DNA of 64,000 bases from contig NZ_CP074372.1 of the NCBI RefSeq assembly GCF_018362995.1, forward strand, positions 3,100,001 to 3,164,000. Reading direction: 5' to 3'. The stretch comes from Chryseobacterium indologenes. GTDB taxonomy: Bacteria; Bacteroidota; Bacteroidia; Flavobacteriales; Weeksellaceae. The translations under genes were made by a program, and so were the position numbers. Below the pieces are notes generated by a model. The model made no database searches. It had not been told where the DNA came from and saw nothing but the letters and a program-made list of their open reading frames with translations. This document shows positions 49,690 to 58,060 of the stretch, in pieces; the stretch's first letter is position 1, and the number at the start of each line of letters is the position of its first letter.

Positions 49690-49888
49690 TGATTCAAAAT
49701 TAATAATTAAAATGGGAATGGTCAATAGCCGGCTTACAATGATGAGACAAAAGGCTTAAATTATCTTTATTCAGGATTACCGATTTTACGTGAATTTAAT
49801 TTTTATTTCTTCTAAATTAAAACTAGAACGCCCTATATCAACGGCTTAAGGAATTTATTACATTTGTTATATGTCAAAAAGAAGAAAC

Positions 49889-50182
49889 ATGAAAAAACTC
49901 ATCGCTGCGGCTTCGTTTACTGGTATTTTGCTGGTTTCCTGTACGCCGAAAGCTGCTACATCCACTGCTACTGCAGGCACTTCAACATCTACTGCGGAAC
50001 AGATCGCTCAGGGGAAAACTATTTTTGAAAACTCTTGTGGAAGATGTCATAAATTACCTGATCCTGCTTCTCACAACCCTGTGCAATGGGTAGGAATCAT
50101 GAATTCTATGGCTCCAAAGGCAAAATTAACGGATGAACAGCACCAATGGGTTTATGATTATATTGTTTCTGTGAAGAAGTAA
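49889..50182 (+). CDS. Monoheme cytochrome c lipoprotein
   Basis: About 97 residues from MKKLIAAASF; a Met six codons earlier is possible. Lipobox LVSC, a Thr/Ala/Ser-rich linker, heme motif CGRCHKLPDP, and probable axial Met in IMNSMAPKAKLTDEQ. A small electron carrier anchored to the membrane. The next gene is a close paralogue, so this is a tandem duplication. Confidence 0.9.
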   Translation: MKKLIAAASFTGILLVSCTPKAATSTATAGTSTSTAEQIAQGKTIFENSCGRCHKLPDPASHNPVQWVGIMNSMAPKAKLTDEQHQWVYDYIVSVKK

Positions 50183-50202
50183 TCATCAAACAAAAATAGG
50201 AT

Positions 50203-50490
50203 ATGAAAAAATTCATCTTAACCGGTATCGCAGCATCAGCATTTCTGGTATCCTGCGGACCAAAAAGTGTGGCTGTAACAGGGCCAAAGTATACCTCATC
50301 TGAGCAGTTGGCGCAAGGAAAAACCATTTTTGAAAATTCCTGTGCAAAATGCCATAAGCTGCCAGAACCAACGAAACATGACGACAAGGGATGGATCAAC
50401 ACGTTAAGCAGAATGGCTCCAAAAGCTAAACTGAGCGATGACCAGCATCAAATGGTGTATGACTATCTGATCTCTGTTAACAAAAAATAA
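50203..50490 (+). CDS. Monoheme cytochrome c lipoprotein (paralogue)
   Basis: 95 residues. Lipobox LVSC, heme motif CAKCHKLPEP and SRMAPKAKLSDDQHQMVYDYL. Very similar to its upstream neighbour but with a shorter linker. The pair may feed the cbb3 oxidase. Stop overlaps the start of a palindromic terminator. Confidence 0.92.
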   Translation: MKKFILTGIAASAFLVSCGPKSVAVTGPKYTSSEQLAQGKTIFENSCAKCHKLPEPTKHDDKGWINTLSRMAPKAKLSDDQHQMVYDYLISVNKK

Positions 50491-50518
50491 GCTTTCAATT
50501 GAAAGCTTATTTTTTTAA
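50489..50518. terminator. Palindromic terminator after cytochrome pair
   Basis: AAGCTTTCAATTGAAAGCTT, ten perfect pairs, followed by a run of seven T. Confidence 0.85.
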
Positions 50519-50535
50519 TAGGCTTGAAAATCAGA

Positions 50536-51042
50536 TTATTCCGTCTTTTTTATAGTTCTGTTTCTGGTTACTTTTCCTTTGACAAGTTTCTCTCTATCTT
50601 CAAGTATTTCGAGAGCTGCACGGTTGTAAGCAAATTTTTTAGCTTCTTTAAGGGTTCCTAAAGCTTGCTTATACTCAAAGTTTCTTTCCTGCAGAAGAGA
50701 GAGACAGTTCAGAATTTCCGATTTGTCAATTCCTTTTAATTTTAGAGCGAATTCAATTAATTTTTCAGCTTCTTTATAATCTTCATTATTCAAAAGACAT
50801 TCAATATAATATTTAGGAGTATTGATATTGGCGATGTTACTCTGCATAGCTTCATCAAAATATTTCTTCGCTGTTTCGTAATCTTTCAGCTCTTCGGAAT
50901 ATACTCTTCCCATCAGGCAAAGACTGTCTGCGTCTTCAGGTTCGTAAGACAGAGCATAGTTAAGTGCATCCATACATTCAGAAAGATTGAATGGAAAGTA
51001 GTCTAATGCTTCAAAATAATATTTACTTTTAGTTAAGGTCAT
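50536..51042 (-). CDS. TPR-like protein in the RNA-repair cluster
   Basis: 168 residues, helical, with TPR-like units (MDALNYALSYEPEDADSLCLMGRVY, in which A-L-Y-P spacing fits, then ETAKKYFDEAM and EAEKLIEFALKLKG). Basic C-terminus KGKVTRNRTIKKTE. Its start overlaps the prfH end by 14 bases, so it is coupled to it. Likely an adaptor that binds a protein partner; its role in the cluster is unknown. Confidence 0.8.
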   Translation of the reverse strand: MTLTKSKYYFEALDYFPFNLSECMDALNYALSYEPEDADSLCLMGRVYSEELKDYETAKKYFDEAMQSNIANINTPKYYIECLLNNEDYKEAEKLIEFALKLKGIDKSEILNCLSLLQERNFEYKQALGTLKEAKKFAYNRAALEILEDREKLVKGKVTRNRTIKKTE

Positions 51043-51727
51043 TGTTGTAGTTTTTAAGGTCGTTTTTCAAGGCATTCCTTTGTTTTTTGAATGTCTTGTC
51101 TTCGTAATTCTTTTTGAAATCTGTTCCTGAAAATGTCCGGACAGGATTTCCACGTTCTACCTGCATCTGAAGAGACCAGGTTTCTTTCAGTTTTCTTTCC
51201 AGCTGTTGGATATAAGCTGCCATTACTTTTTCTTTTAATCTGATAGCAGAAAGTTTTTTATTCTCCAGCTGCGAGCGTGAGTCCTGTACAAACACTGTTT
51301 CTTTGGTCAGAATATGAGTAGCACGCACCGCTGTATTCACTTTGTTTACATTCTGTCCTCCGCTTCCCTGGCTTCTCGCTGTTTGAAATCTGATATCTTT
51401 TTCATTGAAATCAACCATTTTTACATCATCCAATTCAAAAATTCCGATAAACCAATTGCTTCTTTTATGGAGTTTCCTGAATGTGCTTTTTCCTATCCAG
51501 CAAACAGTTCCCAACCAGTTTTTAAGAAACAGGTTTATCTCTTTTCCTTTTAAAAGCAGGGTTACTGATTTTAATGTAAGGTTTTCATCACCGTTTTCAC
51601 GATGAATGATTTCGTATTCTATTGTATTTTGCTTGGCCTCTTCAAGAAAGGTCTTCAGAACCTTTGCGGCAACCCACTGACATTCTAAAGGACCTCTTCC
51701 TGAAGTGATCTGTATTAATTTTTCCAT
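51029..51727 (-). CDS. prfH: Peptide chain release factor homologue PrfH
   Basis: 232 residues. Carries the peptidyl-tRNA hydrolysis motif GSGGQ (GGQ at 123-125) in QGSGGQNVNKVNTAVRATH, but lacks the tripeptide anticodon region of normal RF1/RF2. This is PrfH, known to free peptides from ribosomes whose 16S rRNA decoding centre has been cut, so that RtcB2 can repair the rRNA. One base after the nucleotidyltransferase and overlapping the TPR-like gene. Confidence 0.93.
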   Translation of the reverse strand: MEKLIQITSGRGPLECQWVAAKVLKTFLEEAKQNTIEYEIIHRENGDENLTLKSVTLLLKGKEINLFLKNWLGTVCWIGKSTFRKLHKRSNWFIGIFELDDVKMVDFNEKDIRFQTARSQGSGGQNVNKVNTAVRATHILTKETVFVQDSRSQLENKKLSAIRLKEKVMAAYIQQLERKLKETWSLQMQVERGNPVRTFSGTDFKKNYEDKTFKKQRNALKNDLKNYNNDLN

Positions 51728-51728
51728 T

Positions 51729-52274
51729 TTATGTTGGCATTTTGCTTAATAAAGGGTGTCCTACCGGATCTGTCCCTTTTTGTAATAAATCTTTTGCAGC
51801 CATTACTGCCCAGCATTTGTCACTGGAGTGTATATTTCTGTAAAATGAAAGTAAAATATCAGGCTTTACGACAGTAAAACCATTGGCTTCTATAGTTTCA
51901 AGATCGTCTCTTTCAAAGAAATCTATGGTAATTCTGTGGAATTTATCATTCTCCAGTTCTACTGTTTTCTCGTACCTGCGGAAGTTTTCTTCACTCGGCA
52001 GGTGATCATACCGGGTCCAGACTTTCTGAAATCCTTCCTGTTGAAGAATGATAACTACATCTGCAACATTTTCTTTCTTTACAAAAACATCAATATCCTT
52101 ATGGTCGTGCGCATGTTTGTATTCCGTATGTCCTGTTTCAGACATAAAATGCCATGCCCAGCCACCTGAAATAATGATTTTATCTTTTAATATGTTTAAA
52201 ATTCCGAGTCCTAACCGGATTCTGAATTCCGGCCAGACTTCGCCGTATCTTTTTATGTTATGTGGTGCTCCCAT
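51729..52274 (-). CDS. Minimal nucleotidyltransferase in the rtcB2-prfH operon
   Basis: 181 residues with the full Pol-beta-type nucleotidyltransferase signature: ISGGWAWHF (Gly37-Gly38), DHKDIDVFV (catalytic Asp60 and Asp62) and a third acid Asp118 in HRITIDFFE. No C-terminal RNA-binding domain such as that of CCA enzymes. Resembles small aminoglycoside-type or AbiEii-like NTases in size only. Sited between rtcB2 and prfH (1 base from prfH), it could add nucleotides to damaged RNA ends or act as a modifying antitoxin-like enzyme; neither is shown. Confidence 0.85.
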   Translation of the reverse strand: MGAPHNIKRYGEVWPEFRIRLGLGILNILKDKIIISGGWAWHFMSETGHTEYKHAHDHKDIDVFVKKENVADVVIILQQEGFQKVWTRYDHLPSEENFRRYEKTVELENDKFHRITIDFFERDDLETIEANGFTVVKPDILLSFYRNIHSSDKCWAVMAAKDLLQKGTDPVGHPLLSKMPT

Positions 52275-52294
52275 TACTTTGTTTTTAAATTAAA

Positions 52295-52346
52295 AGCTGA
52301 AAGTTTATAGTTGAAAGCTCAATATTTTCAGCTGACAACTATAAAC
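52295..52346. repeat. Palindromic element between rtcB2 and the nucleotidyltransferase gene
   Basis: GTTTATAGTTG (52303-52313) pairs with CAACTATAAAC (52336-52346), and AGCTGAAA (52295-52302) pairs with TTTCAGCT (52326-52333). It fills most of the 83-base gap and no T run follows; likely a small mobile-type or mRNA-processing element. Confidence 0.6.
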
Positions 52347-52357
52347 GATCAACCAAA

Positions 52358-53749
52358 TTATCTGTCCATTCTCACAATTCTCGGCTGGAATGTTCCCAGG
52401 ATATCTACCAGTTCACTCTGTGCATTCATTACTTCATTGATGTCTTTATAGGCCATTGGTGCTTCTTCTGCATTTCCGCCCATCAGTGTGACATTTTTAA
52501 GTTTTAATTCTTTCTTGATATCATGCTGAGTGAAAAGGGTTCTGCATTCTCCTCTGGAGTGTGCTCTTCCTGCGCCATGAGATGCTGAATTCAGGGATTC
52601 CGGGTTTCCTTTTCCGCGAACGATAAATCCTTTCGCTGTCATGGATCCGGGAATCATTCCCAGTTCATTTTCATTGGCAGGTGTTGCTCCTTTTCGGTGA
52701 ACAATCACTTCTTTTCCGTTATGGATTTCTTTCCAGGCAAAGTTGTGATGGTTCTCAATTCTGGCTTTTACTCTTCCACCAACGGCTTTTACCAGCCTTC
52801 TGTGAATATCATCATGACAGGCTGAAGCATAATCTCCAGCGAGATTCATTGCCGTCCAATATTCCAATCCAAGGTGTGTGCTAAGATCCAGCCAGGCGAA
52901 GTTTTGGGCTTCTTTTGGTAACGGACACTGTTCTGTAGCCACTCTTGAGTAATATTGGGCAATTTCTGCTCCAAGACCTCTTGAGCCACTGTGAGAAAGT
53001 ATTCCAAGATATTTTCCTTTCGGCAGGCCAATCTGCTCATCTTCTTCGGTGATTTCCACTTCTCCGAATTCGACAAAGTGATTTCCTCCGCCTGAGGATC
53101 CCATCTGTTTAATGGCTTTTCCCTTTAATCTTCTTAAGATCGGGATCATGTCGAATGTATCTCTTTCAAAAATCTCATGGTCTATGTGAGACTTGTGCGT
53201 TTCATACATCCCGAATTTTGTATGTTCGGCAAGCGCTTTTTCATATTTATCTCTTGCACCTTCAAGATATGAAATAGGTGTATCCAAAATACTGAGGCTC
53301 ATTCTGCAGCCAATATCCATTCCTACTCCGTAAGGAATTACTGCATTTTCCACTGCCAGAACTCCCCCAATCGGAAGTCCGTAGCCGCTGTGGGCATCGG
53401 GCATTAATGCTCCCTGTGTAGAAATTGGCAGTTTCAAAGCTGTGTACAACTGATTTTTTGCCTCTTCTGAGATATTGTTACCAAAAATCTGAAATGTAGC
53501 ACGTTGTGAATTCAACATTCTTTTTTCCGTTTTTTTGGATGAAAGCAAGGTTTCTGCAATTTGTCCGAAAGTCAGATCTTTTTCAAATTCTTCCGGATTA
53601 AGCAGAATTTCCTTTAAAATAGATTTTACATGATGAATATTCTTCGTTGCAAAATTTCTTTTCATGACTTCCAATGCTACGTTTACGCTTTGATTATTTG
53701 GATAGCCCAGTTTTAATATATCTTTTCCTTTTAGTTTTAAATTTCCCAT
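52358..53749 (-). CDS. rtcB: RtcB2-type RNA-splicing ligase
   Basis: 463 residues. The metal site DIGC (Asp145, Cys148), GGGNHFVEFG (220-229), ILSHSGSRG, and the guanylated-His motif HGAGR (His391) are intact, so the enzyme should join 2',3'-cyclic phosphate ends to 5'-OH ends. HGAGRAHSRG instead of the common GAGRxMSR and the long N-terminus (about 80 residues, KGKDILKLGYPNNQ) fit the RtcB2 branch that pairs with PrfH. Twenty-seven bases after the unknown basic protein gene. Confidence 0.94.
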   Translation of the reverse strand: MGNLKLKGKDILKLGYPNNQSVNVALEVMKRNFATKNIHHVKSILKEILLNPEEFEKDLTFGQIAETLLSSKKTEKRMLNSQRATFQIFGNNISEEAKNQLYTALKLPISTQGALMPDAHSGYGLPIGGVLAVENAVIPYGVGMDIGCRMSLSILDTPISYLEGARDKYEKALAEHTKFGMYETHKSHIDHEIFERDTFDMIPILRRLKGKAIKQMGSSGGGNHFVEFGEVEITEEDEQIGLPKGKYLGILSHSGSRGLGAEIAQYYSRVATEQCPLPKEAQNFAWLDLSTHLGLEYWTAMNLAGDYASACHDDIHRRLVKAVGGRVKARIENHHNFAWKEIHNGKEVIVHRKGATPANENELGMIPGSMTAKGFIVRGKGNPESLNSASHGAGRAHSRGECRTLFTQHDIKKELKLKNVTLMGGNAEEAPMAYKDINEVMNAQSELVDILGTFQPRIVRMDR

Positions 53750-53776
53750 TGTTTTTGTTTTAAATAACAGTTGGAC

Positions 53777-54511
53777 TTATACGTCCTGTAAGCTTTCTGC
53801 AATCTCTGTTGCAGACATTTTGTAGTGAAAGTATTTTGTACTTTCATTTTGATCAGATTTGTATTTCATCTTCCATGAACTTGGCTTTCCATATATTGTT
53901 TTATGGATAATCCCAGCAACTTTGTGTTGTCCTAAATAATCTCCCAGCTCTGCATATTCTTTTTCGAGTTCAAAGTCTACAGGCTTATAATGGGTAATCA
54001 TATTGGGTCTTATTCTAAGGATAAACCTCCACGGTTCAATGAATTCGTAGTAAATCTCATACCTCTTCCTTATAGGGCAATATTCTTCCTTTTGCAAAAA
54101 ATACTGCCTTTCCATTGGTGTAAGTCCGAATTTCGGATCATTCCAGGCATATTCTGAAACTCGATTGAGCTTCTGCTCTCTTTCCACATAGATTCTTCTT
54201 CCGGATTTTCTTTTCTTTTTAAGAAATTTTCTGCTTTCAGAATACATGTAAGTATTGATTTTCTTCAGAATTCCTTCAAAGAATTCTCCGTATTTGGATC
54301 TCATTACATCTTCCCTTACCACAAAGAATCTTACAAATCCTCTTTGATAAGGCTTATCCAAAGGAATCCATTGGATATTTCTTCTGATGTCTGAAAGTTC
54401 TTCACTACGTCGATATTTTTTTCTGATCTGTTTTTCTACATCTTTTCTAATTGTTCTTTTTCTGCTTCTCAAGCTTCTCAGCCGGGAAAACAGAAAGTTA
54501 TCATTTTCCAT
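53777..54511 (-). CDS. Unknown basic protein, first gene of the RNA-repair cluster
   Basis: 244 residues. The first 40 residues are extremely basic (SRLRSLRSRKRTIRKDVEKQ...), followed by an alpha/beta part with QWIPLDKPYQRGFVRFFVV, RVSEYAWNDPKFGLTPMERQ and EPWRFILRIRPNMITHY, and the C-terminus KMSATEIAESLQDV. No signal peptide or membrane segment. I recognise no family. Basic character and place before rtcB2 suggest that it binds RNA or ribosomes. Inferred only from context. Confidence 0.85.
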   Translation of the reverse strand: MENDNFLFSRLRSLRSRKRTIRKDVEKQIRKKYRRSEELSDIRRNIQWIPLDKPYQRGFVRFFVVREDVMRSKYGEFFEGILKKINTYMYSESRKFLKKKRKSGRRIYVEREQKLNRVSEYAWNDPKFGLTPMERQYFLQKEEYCPIRKRYEIYYEFIEPWRFILRIRPNMITHYKPVDFELEKEYAELGDYLGQHKVAGIIHKTIYGKPSSWKMKYKSDQNESTKYFHYKMSATEIAESLQDV

Positions 54512-54551
54512 TGTTCACAGAAGTATGATGCGAGATTGTAAAGTTTTTTAT

Positions 54552-54618
54552 CTCACACAACTTTTAATCAACTAAAATATTAGTTGAATGGATTAATAAT
54601 AGACGGCTACAGTGTGAG
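54552..54618. promoter_or_regulatory. Nested dyad operator upstream of the RNA-repair cluster
   Basis: TCAACTAA-AATA-TTAGTTGA (54568-54587), eight perfect pairs, is flanked by CTCACAC (54552-54558) and GTGTGAG (54612-54618), also inverted. It lies about 57 bases before the first gene, at a likely promoter position. Either a regulator site or a structured leader. Not assigned to any known regulator. Confidence 0.5.
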
Positions 54619-54694
54619 GATATAATTCACCTGTTTCGTCTGTAATGACACTAAAAAAGATTTCGGGTAAACCTGGGAGTTTGAAATATTGCGC

Positions 54695-54730
54695 AATAAA
54701 AAACCCGAAATCTCTACGACTTCGGGTTTT
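54695..54730 (-). terminator. Terminator of the leader transcript
   Basis: AAAACCCGAA (minus-strand arm 54730-54721) pairs with TTCGGGTTTT, ten pairs and T run. A third strand ACCCGAAATC at 54668-54659 can also pair with GATTTCGGGT of the hairpin, an alternative fold. Confidence 0.8.
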
Positions 54731-54752
54731 GATATTTTATTGTACTGTTATT

Positions 54753-54830
54753 CTAAGAATGTACCAAACCGCGAAGCCTTACCACCATAAGTGGCAATCC
54801 AACTGTAGAATTCTGTTTAGTTCTGAACAT
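54753..54830 (-). CDS. 25-codon ORF in the leader transcript
   Basis: ATG-TAG frame beginning MFRTKQNSTVG and ending RGLVHS, rich in Leu, Val and Arg. It starts about 37 bases after the predicted transcription start. No Shine-Dalgarno sequence, which is normal here. The peptide could be real, a regulatory leader, or chance. I recognise no homologue. Confidence 0.4.
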   Translation of the reverse strand: MFRTKQNSTVGLPLMVVRLRGLVHS

Positions 54831-54871
54831 TGCTTCGTCGTTTTTTATTGGTTAAACTTGATTTTCAGGTG

Positions 54872-54900
54872 CAAATATATAAATTTTTCTGAGAATCAAA
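54872..54900 (-). promoter_or_regulatory. Strong Bacteroidota promoter of the leader transcript
   Basis: TATATTTG (54872-54879) is a perfect TAnnTTTG -7 box; TTTG (54897-54900) is the -33 element; spacer 17 bases. Confidence 0.7.
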
Positions 54901-54910
54901 ATTATTTTTT

Positions 54911-55897
54911 TCACTTAAGGTGAATAATACTGAGAAAAATAGCATCAATAACTTTTGTCATTCTCTTTGTATCGAGGGTTTCCAGAGTGTCTGTGGGTTG
55001 GTGATAATTTTTATTTCTGAAAAAAGATGAATCGGTGATCATGAGTGCCTGAAAATCAAAATTCCAATAGTTGAGATGGTCGGAAAAGTCTATTCCAGCC
55101 ACAAATTTAGGCGCTGAGAAGGTTTCTATTTTGATCTGCTCAGAGCCTTTAAATTTGTCGATAAAGTTTTTTACAAACGGACCTGCCCCACTGAACTTTT
55201 TAGCCAAAGTAATAAAGTCTCCTTTATCACCGTAAAACCATGAAAGAATGCCTAAAGGAAAGCTCTGCGATCCCTTTTCATCTCTGAAGTATCCAATCAT
55301 TTCCACGCTGGCCATCCCATACACATCGATATTATTGTCTTTTAAGTATTTTGCATGGACATAACTTCCCATATTTTCAGTCCTGAAATAAGGAGGTTCT
55401 TCCAATGTGTAAGCTACAAGATCAACTCTGTACTTCAGCTTTTGTCCTTTAAGCATTCTTGCCAGCTCCAAGAGGGCTGTAACTCCGGTTGCATTATCAT
55501 CTGCACCCTGCTGATCTCCGCAAACATCGTAATGAGCTCCTATAATGATTCGTTTTTTGTTTTCTGTTCCAAAGGAAGTAATTACGTTCTTATATATTTT
55601 CCCATCCACTTTATATTCCTGGTAAGCAGTGCTGTCGCCATAGGTATTGAAAGTCTGATGGATATAGTCTGCGATTGTATTAAGCTGGTCTATATTTTTA
55701 TGGTTTCTGAATTGTGGTGTTTGGGTAAGCGCTGTCAAATGTTTTTTAACCAAAGTAGTATCTGCAATGATCTTCGAGCTTTGTATGGATCTATTTTTCT
55801 TCCCCGAAGCTAACAGGAAAATACCAGCGATAATAAATAAGCCTACGAGAAGAAACAGTTTTTTCCTCGTAGGCTTTATTATATTTTTCAGATTCAT
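54911..55897 (-). CDS. M28 family zinc aminopeptidase
   Basis: 328 residues with an N-terminal membrane signal-anchor (about 12-30) and the dinuclear zinc site: GAHYDVCGDQQGADDNATG and LEEPPYF. An exopeptidase of the envelope or periplasm that releases amino acids. The promoter may lie in the 42 bases before it, which contain the palindrome described separately. Confidence 0.9.
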   Translation of the reverse strand: MNLKNIIKPTRKKLFLLVGLFIIAGIFLLASGKKNRSIQSSKIIADTTLVKKHLTALTQTPQFRNHKNIDQLNTIADYIHQTFNTYGDSTAYQEYKVDGKIYKNVITSFGTENKKRIIIGAHYDVCGDQQGADDNATGVTALLELARMLKGQKLKYRVDLVAYTLEEPPYFRTENMGSYVHAKYLKDNNIDVYGMASVEMIGYFRDEKGSQSFPLGILSWFYGDKGDFITLAKKFSGAGPFVKNFIDKFKGSEQIKIETFSAPKFVAGIDFSDHLNYWNFDFQALMITDSSFFRNKNYHQPTDTLETLDTKRMTKVIDAIFLSIIHLK

Positions 55898-55907
55898 AGG
55901 ATGTGTT

Positions 55908-55930
55908 TTAATTTCAAATTGAAATTAAAG
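55908..55930. repeat. Palindrome between scpA and the M28 peptidase
   Basis: TTTAATTTCAA-A-TTGAAATTAAA: 11 perfect pairs around one base. Ten bases after the scpA stop; it may act as terminator, though the T run is short. Confidence 0.7.
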
Positions 55931-55939
55931 CTTTTCTGT

Positions 55940-58060
55940 TTATTTTTCTAAAAACCTCTCTAAAATTTCTACTGCACATTTCGGCAGGTTGGTTCCAGGT
56001 CCGAAAATAAAGTCTGCACCGTTGGCATATAGGAATTCATAATCCTGTTGGGGAATTACTCCTCCTACAACGATGGTGATATCATCTGCTCCCAGTTTGG
56101 ATAATTCTTCCACTACCTGCGGAACTAATGTTTTGTGTCCGGCAGCCAGTGAAGAAACTCCTAAAATATGGATATCATTTTCCACGGCCTGTTTAGCTAC
56201 TTCTTCCGGTGTCTGGAATAATGGAGCGACATCTACGTCAAATCCCATATCGGCAAATGCTGTGGCTACTACTTTCGCACCTCTGTCATGTCCGTCCTGT
56301 CCCATTTTAGCTACCATAAGTCTTGGGCGGCGTCCTTCTTCTTCTTCAAATTTCTGAGTCAGATGAAGGGCTTTTTCAAAGTATTCATTTTTACCGGCAT
56401 TCATTGCGTATACACCAGAGATTGTTTTAATATTTGCTTTATATCTTCCAAAGGTTTCTTCCATAGCATCACTCATTTCGCCAAGGGTAACTCTTCTTCT
56501 TGCTGCTTCGATACATAATGCCAGAAGATTTCCTTTTCCTGTTTTTGCGCTTTCACGGATCTCATTCAGGATTTGTTCAACAGCAGCTTTATTTCGTTCA
56601 GCTTTAATAGTATCTAATCTTTCGATCTGCTTTCTGCGAACTTCTGTATTATCAATGTCTAAGATTTCTATCTGGTCCTGTTTCAATGAGGATTTGAATG
56701 AATTCACTCCGATAATGAATTCTTCTCCACTGTCGATCTTAGCTTGTTTTTTAGCAGCAGCTTCTTCAATTCTCATTTTGGGAATTCCGGCTTCGATGGC
56801 TTTGGTCATACCTCCTTCCTGCTCTACCTCATCAATGTACCTCATCGCTTCTTCGATCATTTGCTGAGTAAGGCTTTCCACCAGGTTACTTCCTCCCATC
56901 GGATCTACCACATCGCATATTCCGCTTTCCTGCTGAAGAATGATCTGTGTATTTCTTGCAATTTTTGCTGAATAGTCTGTAGGAAGAGCAATGGCTTCAT
57001 CCAGTGCATTGGTGTGGAGAGACTGTGTACCTCCTAAAGCTGAAGACAAAGCTTCAATGGCTGTTCTTGTAATATTATTGAAAGGTTCCTGCTCTGTCAG
57101 AGACCATCCGGACGTCTGGGAATGGGTTCTTAATGCCAGAGATTTTGGATTCTGAGGATTAAACTGTTTTAAAAGGGTTGCCCAGATATATCTTGCGGCA
57201 CGCATTTTAGCAATTTCCATGAAATGATTCATCCCGATTGCCCAGAAGAAAGATAGTCTTGGAGCAAAATCGTCTACATTCATTCCTGCTTTTATTCCTG
57301 TTCTTACGTATTCAAGACCATCGGCCAGCGTATAAGCCATTTCAAGTACCGGTGTGGCACCCGCTTCCTGCATATGATATCCGGAAATGGAAATAGAATT
57401 GAATTTTGGAATGTTTTGCGAAGTGTATTCAAAAATATCTGCGATAATTTTCATGGAAGGTGCCGGCGGATAGATATAGGTATTTCTTACCATGAACTCC
57501 TTCAGAATATCATTTTGAATGGTTCCTGAAAGCAGTTCCTGTTTTACTCCCTGCTCTTCTGCTGCTACGATATAGAAAGACAAAATAGGAAGTACCGCCC
57601 CATTCATGGTCATGGATACTGAAATCTGGTCCAGTGGGATTTCATTGAAAAGGATTTTCATGTCTTCCACAGAGTCGATGGCAACTCCTGCTTTTCCTAC
57701 GTCACCCACCACTCTTGAGTGATCAGAATCATATCCTCTGTGCGTTGCCAAGTCAAATGCCACCGAAAGTCCTTTCTGACCTGCGGCAAGATTTCTTCTG
57801 TAAAAAGCGTTGGATTCTTCGGCAGTAGAAAACCCTGCATATTGACGAACCGTCCAAGGTTTCTGTACATACATCGTAGAATACGGTCCTCTCAGATAAG
57901 GAGCAATTCCTGGAGAAGTCTGCGTTAATGATTCATCTTTTACATCTTTTTTCTCATAAGATGATTTGAGTTCAAGCCCGTCTTTTTCAAAATTGTAAAT
58001 CTCTCTTTCCTGAGGTAATACATTAAAATCCGGTTTTTTCACAGAAATTGTCTTTCGCAT
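55940..58060 (-). CDS. scpA: Methylmalonyl-CoA mutase (Sbm/ScpA-like)
   Basis: 706 residues. N-terminal TIM barrel with RPYSTMY... pattern, then the C-terminal B12-binding Rossmann domain with [10 protein letters not shown] near residues 590-600. Adenosylcobalamin-dependent interconversion of succinyl-CoA and methylmalonyl-CoA. No small subunit gene (mutA) is next to it, so it should work as an Sbm-like homodimer unless the partner is encoded elsewhere. MeaB is encoded 6 kb away. Confidence 0.95.

What the first reader, a model, noticed from the sequence alone, without database searches (positions are those of the whole stretch)
50536..54511. RtcB2-PrfH repair pair expanded with three extra genes
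Seen: a minus-strand string of five genes with gaps of 27, 83 and 1 base and a 14-base overlap. Known: RtcB2 and PrfH together rescue ribosomes cut in the 16S decoding centre. Inferred: the basic protein, nucleotidyltransferase and TPR-like gene are further parts of an RNA or ribosome repair system that has not, to my knowledge, been described as a five-gene unit. It could counter ribotoxins or phage-triggered anticodon nucleases.
Basis: partly seen in the sequence, partly recalled or inferred. Interest (0 to 1): 0.78.

Follow-up and report, generated by a model that had tools for sequence, protein, structure and literature searches.

The report
Ribosome-repair operon with RNA leader switch
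The five genes are a version, already described in outline, of a bacterial kit for rescuing and re-sealing cut ribosomes; what looks new is a conserved stretch of RNA in front of them that seems built to switch the kit on when ribosomes get stuck.

Summary
The five genes, gaps and overlap are as stated: PrfH (above cut-off), an RtcB ligase, a Pol-beta-type nucleotidyltransferase, a TPR protein and a charged protein. The novelty claim fails: Burroughs and Aravind 2019 (PMC6514570, section 2.4 read) list these accessory classes around prfH-rtcB. Co-occurrence holds: in 296 genomes of the order prfH is in 62; the TPR gene is in 60 of 62 loci; transferase (23 genomes) and basic gene (24) occur only with prfH, bar one weak transferase hit. 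The RtcB2 label is not supported by sequence. Two findings go further. (1) A leader of about 165 nt (54690-54862) precedes the operon: promoter box, 25-codon upstream ORF (36 of 36 aligned), covarying hairpin, competing terminator and antiterminator pairings. A covariance model finds it in 52 of 286 genomes, all prfH-positive. I read it as a ribosome-sensing attenuator; I found no description. (2) The transferase family also occurs in giant phages, 9 of 14 records with RtcB, none with PrfH above cut-off. The leader's trigger and the extra proteins' functions are inference.

The parts
54872..54899 (-). Promoter-like pair TTG-17 nt-TATATTTG (Bacteroidota type TTG / TAnnTTTG; consensus recalled)
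   Evidence: TAnnTTTG just upstream of the leader in 36 of 36 aligned loci against 3.1% of random windows (both boxes 29 of 36 against 0.7%); 11 of 57 more distant loci
54690..54862 (-). Conserved leader RNA with terminator (attenuator candidate)
   Evidence: (z -4.18); Rfam BTnc005 sub-threshold 29.8 of 174.8 bits
54753..54830 (-). Upstream ORF, 25 codons, MFRTKQNSTVGLPLMVVRLRGLVHS, stop TAG
   Evidence: exactly 25 codons in 36 of 36; synonymous share 0.43 against 0.24 expected; in-frame ATG ORF in 47 of 57 distant loci
54832..54837 (-). Region 1, CGAAGC, just 5' of the uORF start; pairs with region 2
   Evidence: helix 1, 98.1% of cells paired; nearly invariant, so no covariation support
54766..54778 (-). 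Region 2, GGCTTCGCGGTTT, inside uORF codons Arg-Leu-Arg-Gly; pairs with region 1 or with region 3
54779..54797 (-). Covarying hairpin inside the uORF
   Evidence: three pairs with changes on both sides
54698..54729 (-). Intrinsic terminator; its 5' arm (54718-54729) is region 3
   Evidence: 100% of cells paired; antiterminator 97.0% of cells paired
53777..54511 (-). Basic, charged protein, 244 aa, no known family
   Evidence: model pLDDT 83.4, pTM 0.62
52358..53749 (-). RtcB-family RNA ligase, 463 aa, longer at the N-terminus than the E. coli prfH-linked ligase
   Evidence: seven active-site residues kept
52275..52357 (-). rtcB-nucleotidyltransferase spacer with strong hairpin
   Evidence: z -5.91; no second copy in the genome
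51729..52274 (-). Pol-beta-type nucleotidyltransferase, 181 aa (SGGWAWH, HKDID, TIDFF)
   Evidence: phage relatives
51029..51727 (-). PrfH (peptide chain release factor H), 232 aa, GGQ present
   Evidence: PDB 9mor/9mq4 E 4.3e-95
50536..51042 (-). TPR protein, 168 aa
   Evidence: next after prfH in 60 of 62 loci

Best explanation
This is the Flavobacteriales form of the PrfH-RtcB ribosome rescue and repair operon. One promoter makes a leader RNA that is both a short reading frame and a terminator switch. Region 1 (next to the uORF start) can pair with region 2 (in the uORF), which leaves region 3 free to form the terminator: off. If a ribosome has loaded on the uORF but does not move, it covers region 1; region 2 then pairs with region 3, the terminator cannot form, and the operon is read: on. 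No ribosome, or a ribosome that runs to the stop codon, gives off. Ribosomes cut in the 16S decoding centre should do just what turns it on: start and then stick. PrfH then frees the trapped peptidyl-tRNA and RtcB re-seals the RNA. The TPR and basic proteins are read as scaffold or rRNA-binding helpers. The nucleotidyltransferase is read as adding nucleotides to damaged RNA (tRNA or rRNA) ends. Shown: the genes, their linkage, the leader's conservation, the uORF, the alternative complementarities, and the lack of a TAnnTTTG box after the terminator in 35 of 36 loci. Inferred: the switching, its trigger and all accessory functions.
For: PrfH above cut-off; RtcB active site complete; linkage of the accessory genes. 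Leader in 52 of 286 genomes, every one prfH-positive; 52 of 53 matches lie upstream of the operon (51 on the contig of prfH; in G267 the operon is split and the leader is on the contig of the transferase). Leader stays when the basic gene is absent. uORF of 25 codons in 36 of 36; CTT-to-stop distance 7 codons in 36 of 36 and in 47 of 57 distant loci, all four pairing motifs in 54 of 57. Structure 98.2% of cells paired, 48 doubly changed cells against 18.0 in shuffles; antiterminator 97.0% paired. Promoter box before the leader 36 of 36, between terminator and first gene 1 of 36, expected 4.4. Precedent: HflXr (PMC6310831, passages), a ribosome-splitting factor induced through a small-ORF attenuator. 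PMC9223846 (passages): PrfH releases fMet from fMet-tRNA on E3-cut 70S ribosomes, which I take as a state stuck at the start.
Against: No expression data. Region 1-2 and antiterminator pairs hardly vary, so covariation supports the hairpin and one terminator pair, not the switch itself; two of the five measures are not above shuffles (pairs with double change 4, reached by 162 of 500; further pair types 15, reached by 500 of 500), and relatedness can inflate the others. The motif count has no chance control. 10 of 57 distant leaders lack an in-frame ATG ORF through region 2. Seven of 64 further loci gave no leader at E 0.1: L082 and L148 inside the order and with prfH, L164, L178, L179, L181 and L182 outside it. 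One extra match lies away from the operon (G088, E 6.6e-4). Rfam's nearest, weak match is a Bacteroides sRNA. An added nucleotide leaves a 3'-OH, whereas RtcB joins 3'-phosphate ends (established knowledge), so 'refill, then RtcB seals' is not straightforward.
Confidence: 0.6

Rival explanations
1. The leader is a free-standing small RNA (BTnc005-like) that ends at its terminator; the operon has its own promoter after it.
For: Terminator stem fully paired in the 36 aligned copies; sub-threshold match to Bacteroides sRNA BTnc005, E 7e-4.
Against: No TAnnTTTG box between terminator and first gene in 35 of 36 loci (other promoter types not tested); leader on the operon's strand 5' of its first gene in the hits; uORF kept.
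Confidence: 0.2
2. The leader is an attenuator, but answers a ribosome-binding antibiotic or tRNA/amino-acid shortage rather than cut ribosomes.
For: 31 of 36 leader peptides carry Arg-Leu-Arg, the motif named for macrolide-type leader peptides in PMC6310831 (passages).
Against: The RLR codons are region 2 itself, so a ribosome held there would hide the antiterminator; the Flavobacterium peptides printed lack RLR and keep Leu-Arg-Gly; no run of one codon.
Confidence: 0.3
3. The extra genes are passengers of a defence island and do not act with PrfH-RtcB.
For: They are patchy: transferase in 22 and basic gene in 24 of 62 loci; other accessory genes occupy the same slots; of 80 loci fetched by the basic gene, 5 lack RtcB or PrfH in the stretch held, one of them (L149) both.
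Against: 0 of 234 prfH-negative genomes of the order sample carry the basic gene and only one weak transferase hit; fixed slots in that sample; identities track RtcB (r 0.93 and 0.86); one basic-RtcB fused ORF (L166).
Confidence: 0.08
4. The nucleotidyltransferase modifies a protein or small molecule (antitoxin- or lincosamide-transferase-like) rather than RNA.
For: Nearest known relatives by profile include lincosamide and aminoglycoside nucleotidyltransferases, all below cut-off or at E 0.05.
Against: Phage relatives: RtcB in 9 of 14 records and tRNA genes near 6 of 14 loci, four distinct after two near-duplicate pairs.
Confidence: 0.3

Closest known systems
prfH/RFH-RtcB operon with accreted genes (Burroughs and Aravind 2019, PMC6514570, section 2.4 read; two-gene form Baranov 2006, PMC1586002, passages)
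   Same: PrfH plus RtcB with TPR, Pol-beta transferase and charged protein; same kind of proposed role
   Different: Here counted across 296 genomes; a leader RNA and phage relatives of the transferase are not in the section read; figures and supplement of that paper not seen
E. coli RtcB2-PrfH (PMC9223846, passages)
   Same: PrfH and ligase side by side; protects against colicin E3 in that work
   Different: No extra genes of these classes annotated at the E. coli plasmid locus viewed; ligase there is 379 aa and 31% identical
hflXr leader rli80 of Listeria (PMC6310831, passages)
   Same: Small ORF plus alternative RNA structures upstream of a ribosome-rescue gene; peptide with RLR
   Different: Other gene; 14-aa ORF; trigger there lincomycin and erythromycin; sequences not compared here
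Rfam RF04178 BTnc005 (Bacteroides sRNA)
   Same: Weak similarity over the whole model, clearest in the 3' part and terminator
   Different: 29.8 bits against a gathering score of 174.8
RlaP transferases of phages (PMC7824862, passages)
   Same: Pol-beta transferase said to work beside RNA ligases in jumbo phages
   Different: Not compared here; PMC6514570 says the PrfH-linked transferase is not specifically related to RlaP

Membership tests
PrfH-RtcB rescue/repair operon | Release factor of the PrfH family | tested here: met
   TIGR03072 205.4 bits, cut-off 166.65; GGQ seen in the sequence
PrfH-RtcB rescue/repair operon | RtcB ligase gene in the same gene string, active site intact | tested here: met
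   PF01139; equivalents of E. coli RtcB1 D75, C78, N167, H168, H185, H281, H337 kept (that these are the active-site positions is recalled)
PrfH-RtcB rescue/repair operon | Ligase of the E. coli RtcB2 (TIGR03073) subfamily | tested here: not met
   141.3 bits, cut-off 271.8; not grouped with E. coli RtcB2 in the tree, long branches warned of
PrfH-RtcB rescue/repair operon | Release and re-ligation on cut ribosomes | not testable with these tools
   biochemistry
Accessory classes of PMC6514570 | TPR gene, Pol-beta transferase, charged helical protein linked to prfH-rtcB | tested here: met
   charge of the basic protein judged from its letters, not computed; identity with that paper's proteins not checked, its supplement not seen
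Accessory classes of PMC6514570 | Zinc-ribbon protein | tested here: not met
   no room for it in the window; a Cys-pair protein is in 9 of 62 loci of the order sample, sub-threshold zinc-ribbon matches for the one scanned
Ribosome-mediated transcription attenuator | Translated leader ORF | tested here: inconclusive
   ORF conserved; translation itself not shown
Ribosome-mediated transcription attenuator | Mutually exclusive antiterminator and terminator | tested here: met
   by complementarity, not by covariation
Ribosome-mediated transcription attenuator | Read-through controlled by ribosome position | not testable with these tools
   needs reporter or in vitro transcription
BTnc005 (RF04178) | Gathering score reached | tested here: not met
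   29.8 of 174.8 bits

The most novel reading that the evidence does not exclude
The leader is a dedicated damage sensor: decoding-centre-cut ribosomes start the uORF, stick there, free region 2 and switch on the very operon that rescues and re-seals them, closing a feedback loop. The extra transferase is an RNA-end repair enzyme traded between this operon and the RtcB/tRNA gear of giant phages.
Probability: 0.33. Interest if true: 0.82.

Novelty: new variant of a known kind. Interest (0 to 1): 0.56.

Why it matters
The operon itself is known in outline. A leader RNA tied to it would explain how a repair kit of this sort is regulated, and it can be tested with a simple reporter. If the trigger is damaged ribosomes, it would be a direct cellular readout of cut 16S rRNA. 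The phage relatives give an independent handle on what the uncharacterised transferase does.

Tried and rejected
RtcB2 label: rejected by score and tree. Plasmid spread of the transferase or basic gene: no match at E 0.01 in 72,556 plasmid records; basic gene not found in 50,697 phage records nor by the pattern scan of viral contigs. Defence library: no useful match. Dispersed-repeat origin of the rtcB hairpin: no second copy at E 0.001. Sigma-70 promoter and terminator scan: 14 promoter-like sites against 11.7 in shuffles and 4 terminator-like against 3.0; it did not list the leader terminator; not relied on. Control for the RtcB rate in giant phages: the query drew only itself, so no base rate is given. 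A transferase structure and all fold searches could not be run. Homology of the leader to BTnc005: left open; no paper with that name was found.
Full report
What is there. One search confirms the five minus-strand ORFs with gaps of 27, 83 and 1 bases and a 14-base overlap. The window is part of a 5.0 Mb genome in one contig. The nearest named relatives of the basic gene are Chryseobacterium, so I take the host to be that genus (inference). Family searches give RtcB, PrfH (TIGR03072, 205.4 bits, cut-off 166.65) and TPR. The transferase shows only sub-threshold matches to nucleotidyltransferases and the basic protein has no family. RtcB keeps the seven residues aligned to E. coli RtcB1 D75, C78, N167, H168, H185, H281 and H337 (that these are the active-site residues is recalled).

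Prior art. PMC6514570 section 2.4 was read whole, other parts as passages. It says that around prfH-rtcB one finds, in some cases, a TPR gene, a Pol-beta nucleotidyltransferase, a zinc-ribbon protein and a protein with charged helical regions, and it proposes RNA repair and rRNA binding. I did not see its figures or supplement.

Co-occurrence. TIGR03072 is above cut-off in 62 of 296 genomes of the order, one match each, and in 29 of 29 genomes of the genus. I fetched 61 neighbourhoods and used the window as the 62nd. RtcB is upstream of PrfH in 61 of 62 (in L039 as two ORFs); L067 ends at a contig edge. The TPR gene follows PrfH in 60 of 62, one of them a short piece (L061); L053 and L089 lack it. 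The transferase is in 22 of 62, always between RtcB and PrfH; the basic gene is in 24 of 62, before RtcB. All five occur together in 13 of 62, one (L063) with the basic gene in two ORFs. A gene with Cys pairs that I read as the zinc-ribbon protein sits before PrfH in 9 of 62. Searched the other way, the transferase is in 23 of 296 genomes, all prfH-positive, plus one weak hit (G264, E 7.6e-5, prfH-negative); the 23rd (G267) has it on another contig than prfH. The basic gene is in 24 of 296, all prfH-positive. In the phylum sample PrfH is in 28 of 395 and the transferase in 8 of 395, all prfH-positive. Of 80 named loci fetched by the basic gene (best 80 of 114 relatives), 30 show exactly the window's order, 75 hold both RtcB and PrfH, and 5 do not: L145, L160 and L164 without PrfH, L150 without RtcB, L149 without either; some of these stretches end at contig edges. 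Protein identities track those of RtcB (transferase r 0.93 in 21 loci, basic 0.86 in 22, TPR 0.89 in 56; 0 of 2000 permutations each; L039, L061, L063 and L067 dropped beforehand). That fits inheritance together with repeated loss. One locus (L166) has the basic protein and RtcB in one 724-aa ORF; a sequencing error there is not excluded.

Other accessory genes. Capnocytophaga loci place the basic gene by PrfH rather than RtcB where both are seen, and carry a KptA/Tpt1 RNA 2'-phosphotransferase (L144), a NADAR protein (L145) or an RNase T-like exonuclease (L143) before RtcB. L127 carries two further uncharacterised ORFs of 162 and 209 aa without Pfam match; like ORFs are seen in L129, L133 and L135.

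RtcB subtype. The window ligase groups with other Bacteroidota prfH-linked ligases of about 460-480 aa, and not with the 379-aa E. coli prfH-linked ligase (31% identity); a Bacteroidota ligase not next to prfH (G311, second copy) falls in the same group. The tool warned of long branches, so I claim only that membership in the RtcB2 subfamily was tested and not met.

The leader RNA. A 161-base piece upstream of the operon matched 81 of 141 loci plus the window, on the operon strand and 5' of its first gene, whether that was the basic gene or RtcB. In L051 and L136 it overlaps an ORF start by 6 bases, in L144 only 69 bases match, and some genomes are present twice. Of these 82 I aligned 36, chosen by hand for diversity. 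The alignment shows a P1 helix, a covarying hairpin, a possible pseudoknot and a terminator. Cells paired 98.2%; doubly changed cells 48 against a shuffle mean of 18.0, 0 of 500 shuffles as high; slid versions reach at most 55.2%. Against this, the number of pairs with a double change (4) is reached by 162 of 500 shuffles and the number of pair types (15) by all 500. A 12-pair alternative between region 2 and the terminator's 5' arm is 97.0% paired, but it hardly varies. The uORF has exactly 25 codons in 36 of 36; single-base codon differences are synonymous in 0.43 of cases against 0.24 expected, a rough figure from non-independent pairs.

How far the leader reaches. A covariance model searched in 64 further loci found same-strand leaders at E up to 0.1 in 57, all 57 to 257 bases before an operon gene; three are weak (L087, L089, L142, E 0.03-0.07), and 11 weak opposite-strand matches were set aside. 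The other seven gave none: L082 and L148 inside the order, L164, L178, L179, L181 and L182 outside it. All four pairing motifs are present in 54 of 57 (loose motifs, no chance control), the CTT-to-stop distance is 7 codons in 47 and 6 in 6 of 57, and an in-frame ATG ORF runs through it in 47 of 57. The peptides diverge strongly outside Leu-Arg-Gly. In whole genomes the model hits 52 of 286, each of them prfH-positive. Of 53 matches 51 lie upstream of the operon on the contig of prfH, one (G267) on the contig of the transferase, and one (G088, 89 bases, E 6.6e-4) elsewhere. Nine prfH-negative genomes of the same family are listed without a match. Ten of the 62 prfH-positive genomes are not among the hits. 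G287 has a clear leader (L065), so it was probably not drawn into the smaller sample. Of the other nine (G002, G025, G072, G098, G128, G206, G231, G256, G286), eight show a leader and G098 (L082) none.

Promoter. A TAnnTTTG box lies just before the leader in 36 of 36 aligned loci against 3.1% of random windows, and in 11 of 57 distant ones. Between terminator and first gene it is found in 1 of 36 (expected 4.4). Other promoter types were not tested there. The simplest reading is one transcript that must pass the terminator.

Mechanism. Region 1 lies 2-7 bases before the uORF start; region 2 is its Arg-Leu-Arg-Gly codons; region 3 is the terminator's 5' arm. A ribosome at the first codons hides region 1 and leaves 2 free to pair with 3. 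That is the logic of known attenuators; HflXr of Listeria is a ribosome-rescue gene run by a small-ORF attenuator (PMC6310831, passages). PrfH is reported to act on E3-cut 70S ribosomes holding fMet-tRNA (PMC9223846, passages), which I take as the state that would sit at the uORF start. The step from this fit to a real sensor is inference.

Basic protein. A model from 51 relatives has mean pLDDT 83.4 and pTM 0.62, a long N-terminal helix (14-44) and a strand-rich core. No fold comparison could be run, and sequence search of solved structures gave nothing convincing.

Transferase in phages. The family has a 42% identical member in a 735-kb phage (two identical-looking records) and members in 13 IMG/VR contigs, 37-55% identical, with the same motifs. 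RtcB is present in 9 of 14 of these records; L185/L195 and L186/L187 look like near-duplicates, and several records are fragments. In 4 of 8 distinct RtcB-bearing records RtcB lies within about 10 kb of the transferase (distances worked out by hand; expected 1.0, P 0.008 under a uniform model). tRNA genes lie in 6 of 14 loci, four distinct. PrfH above cut-off is in 0 of 14; three records have a weaker release-factor match. No base rate for RtcB in giant phages could be measured.

Literature limits. Paper searches listed nothing on a leader for this operon; only listings were seen except for the papers named. The Rfam search covered window 50000-56000. PMC9723704 (passages) reports 64 structured 5' regions in Flavobacterium psychrophilum in a table that I could not see, so an unnamed earlier sighting is possible.

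Verdict. Observation right; gene-level idea already in print; leader and phage links are the new part, and the leader's switching and trigger await one reporter experiment.

Noticed in passing
L180 9977-10501; L183-L195 near 6001: Relatives of the window transferase in very large phages, with RtcB in 9 of 14 records and no PrfH above cut-off.
   Followed up: partly
L166 5938-8112: Basic protein and RtcB in one 724-aa ORF in Flavobacterium sp. DG2-3.
   Followed up: no
L143-L150: Capnocytophaga loci rearranged, with KptA, NADAR and RNase T-like genes near PrfH and RtcB; L149 keeps leader and basic gene without RtcB or PrfH in the stretch held.
   Followed up: partly
window 52275-52357: Strong hairpin right after rtcB; many other Chryseobacterium loci have hairpins there of unrelated sequence.
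   Followed up: partly
L127 6775-7263 and 9305-9934: Two more uncharacterised ORFs inside the operon of some Chryseobacterium.
   Followed up: partly
L002 1438-2853 (genome position about 4.71 Mb): A second, distant RtcB (26% identical) in the window's genome, far from prfH.
   Followed up: partly
window 51029-51727: PDB 9mor/9mq4 hold a very close PrfH (E 4.3e-95); no paper for them found in the library.
   Followed up: partly
window 49871-50490: Two short tandem genes with CxxCH motifs, cytochrome-like by eye, convergent with the operon.
   Followed up: no
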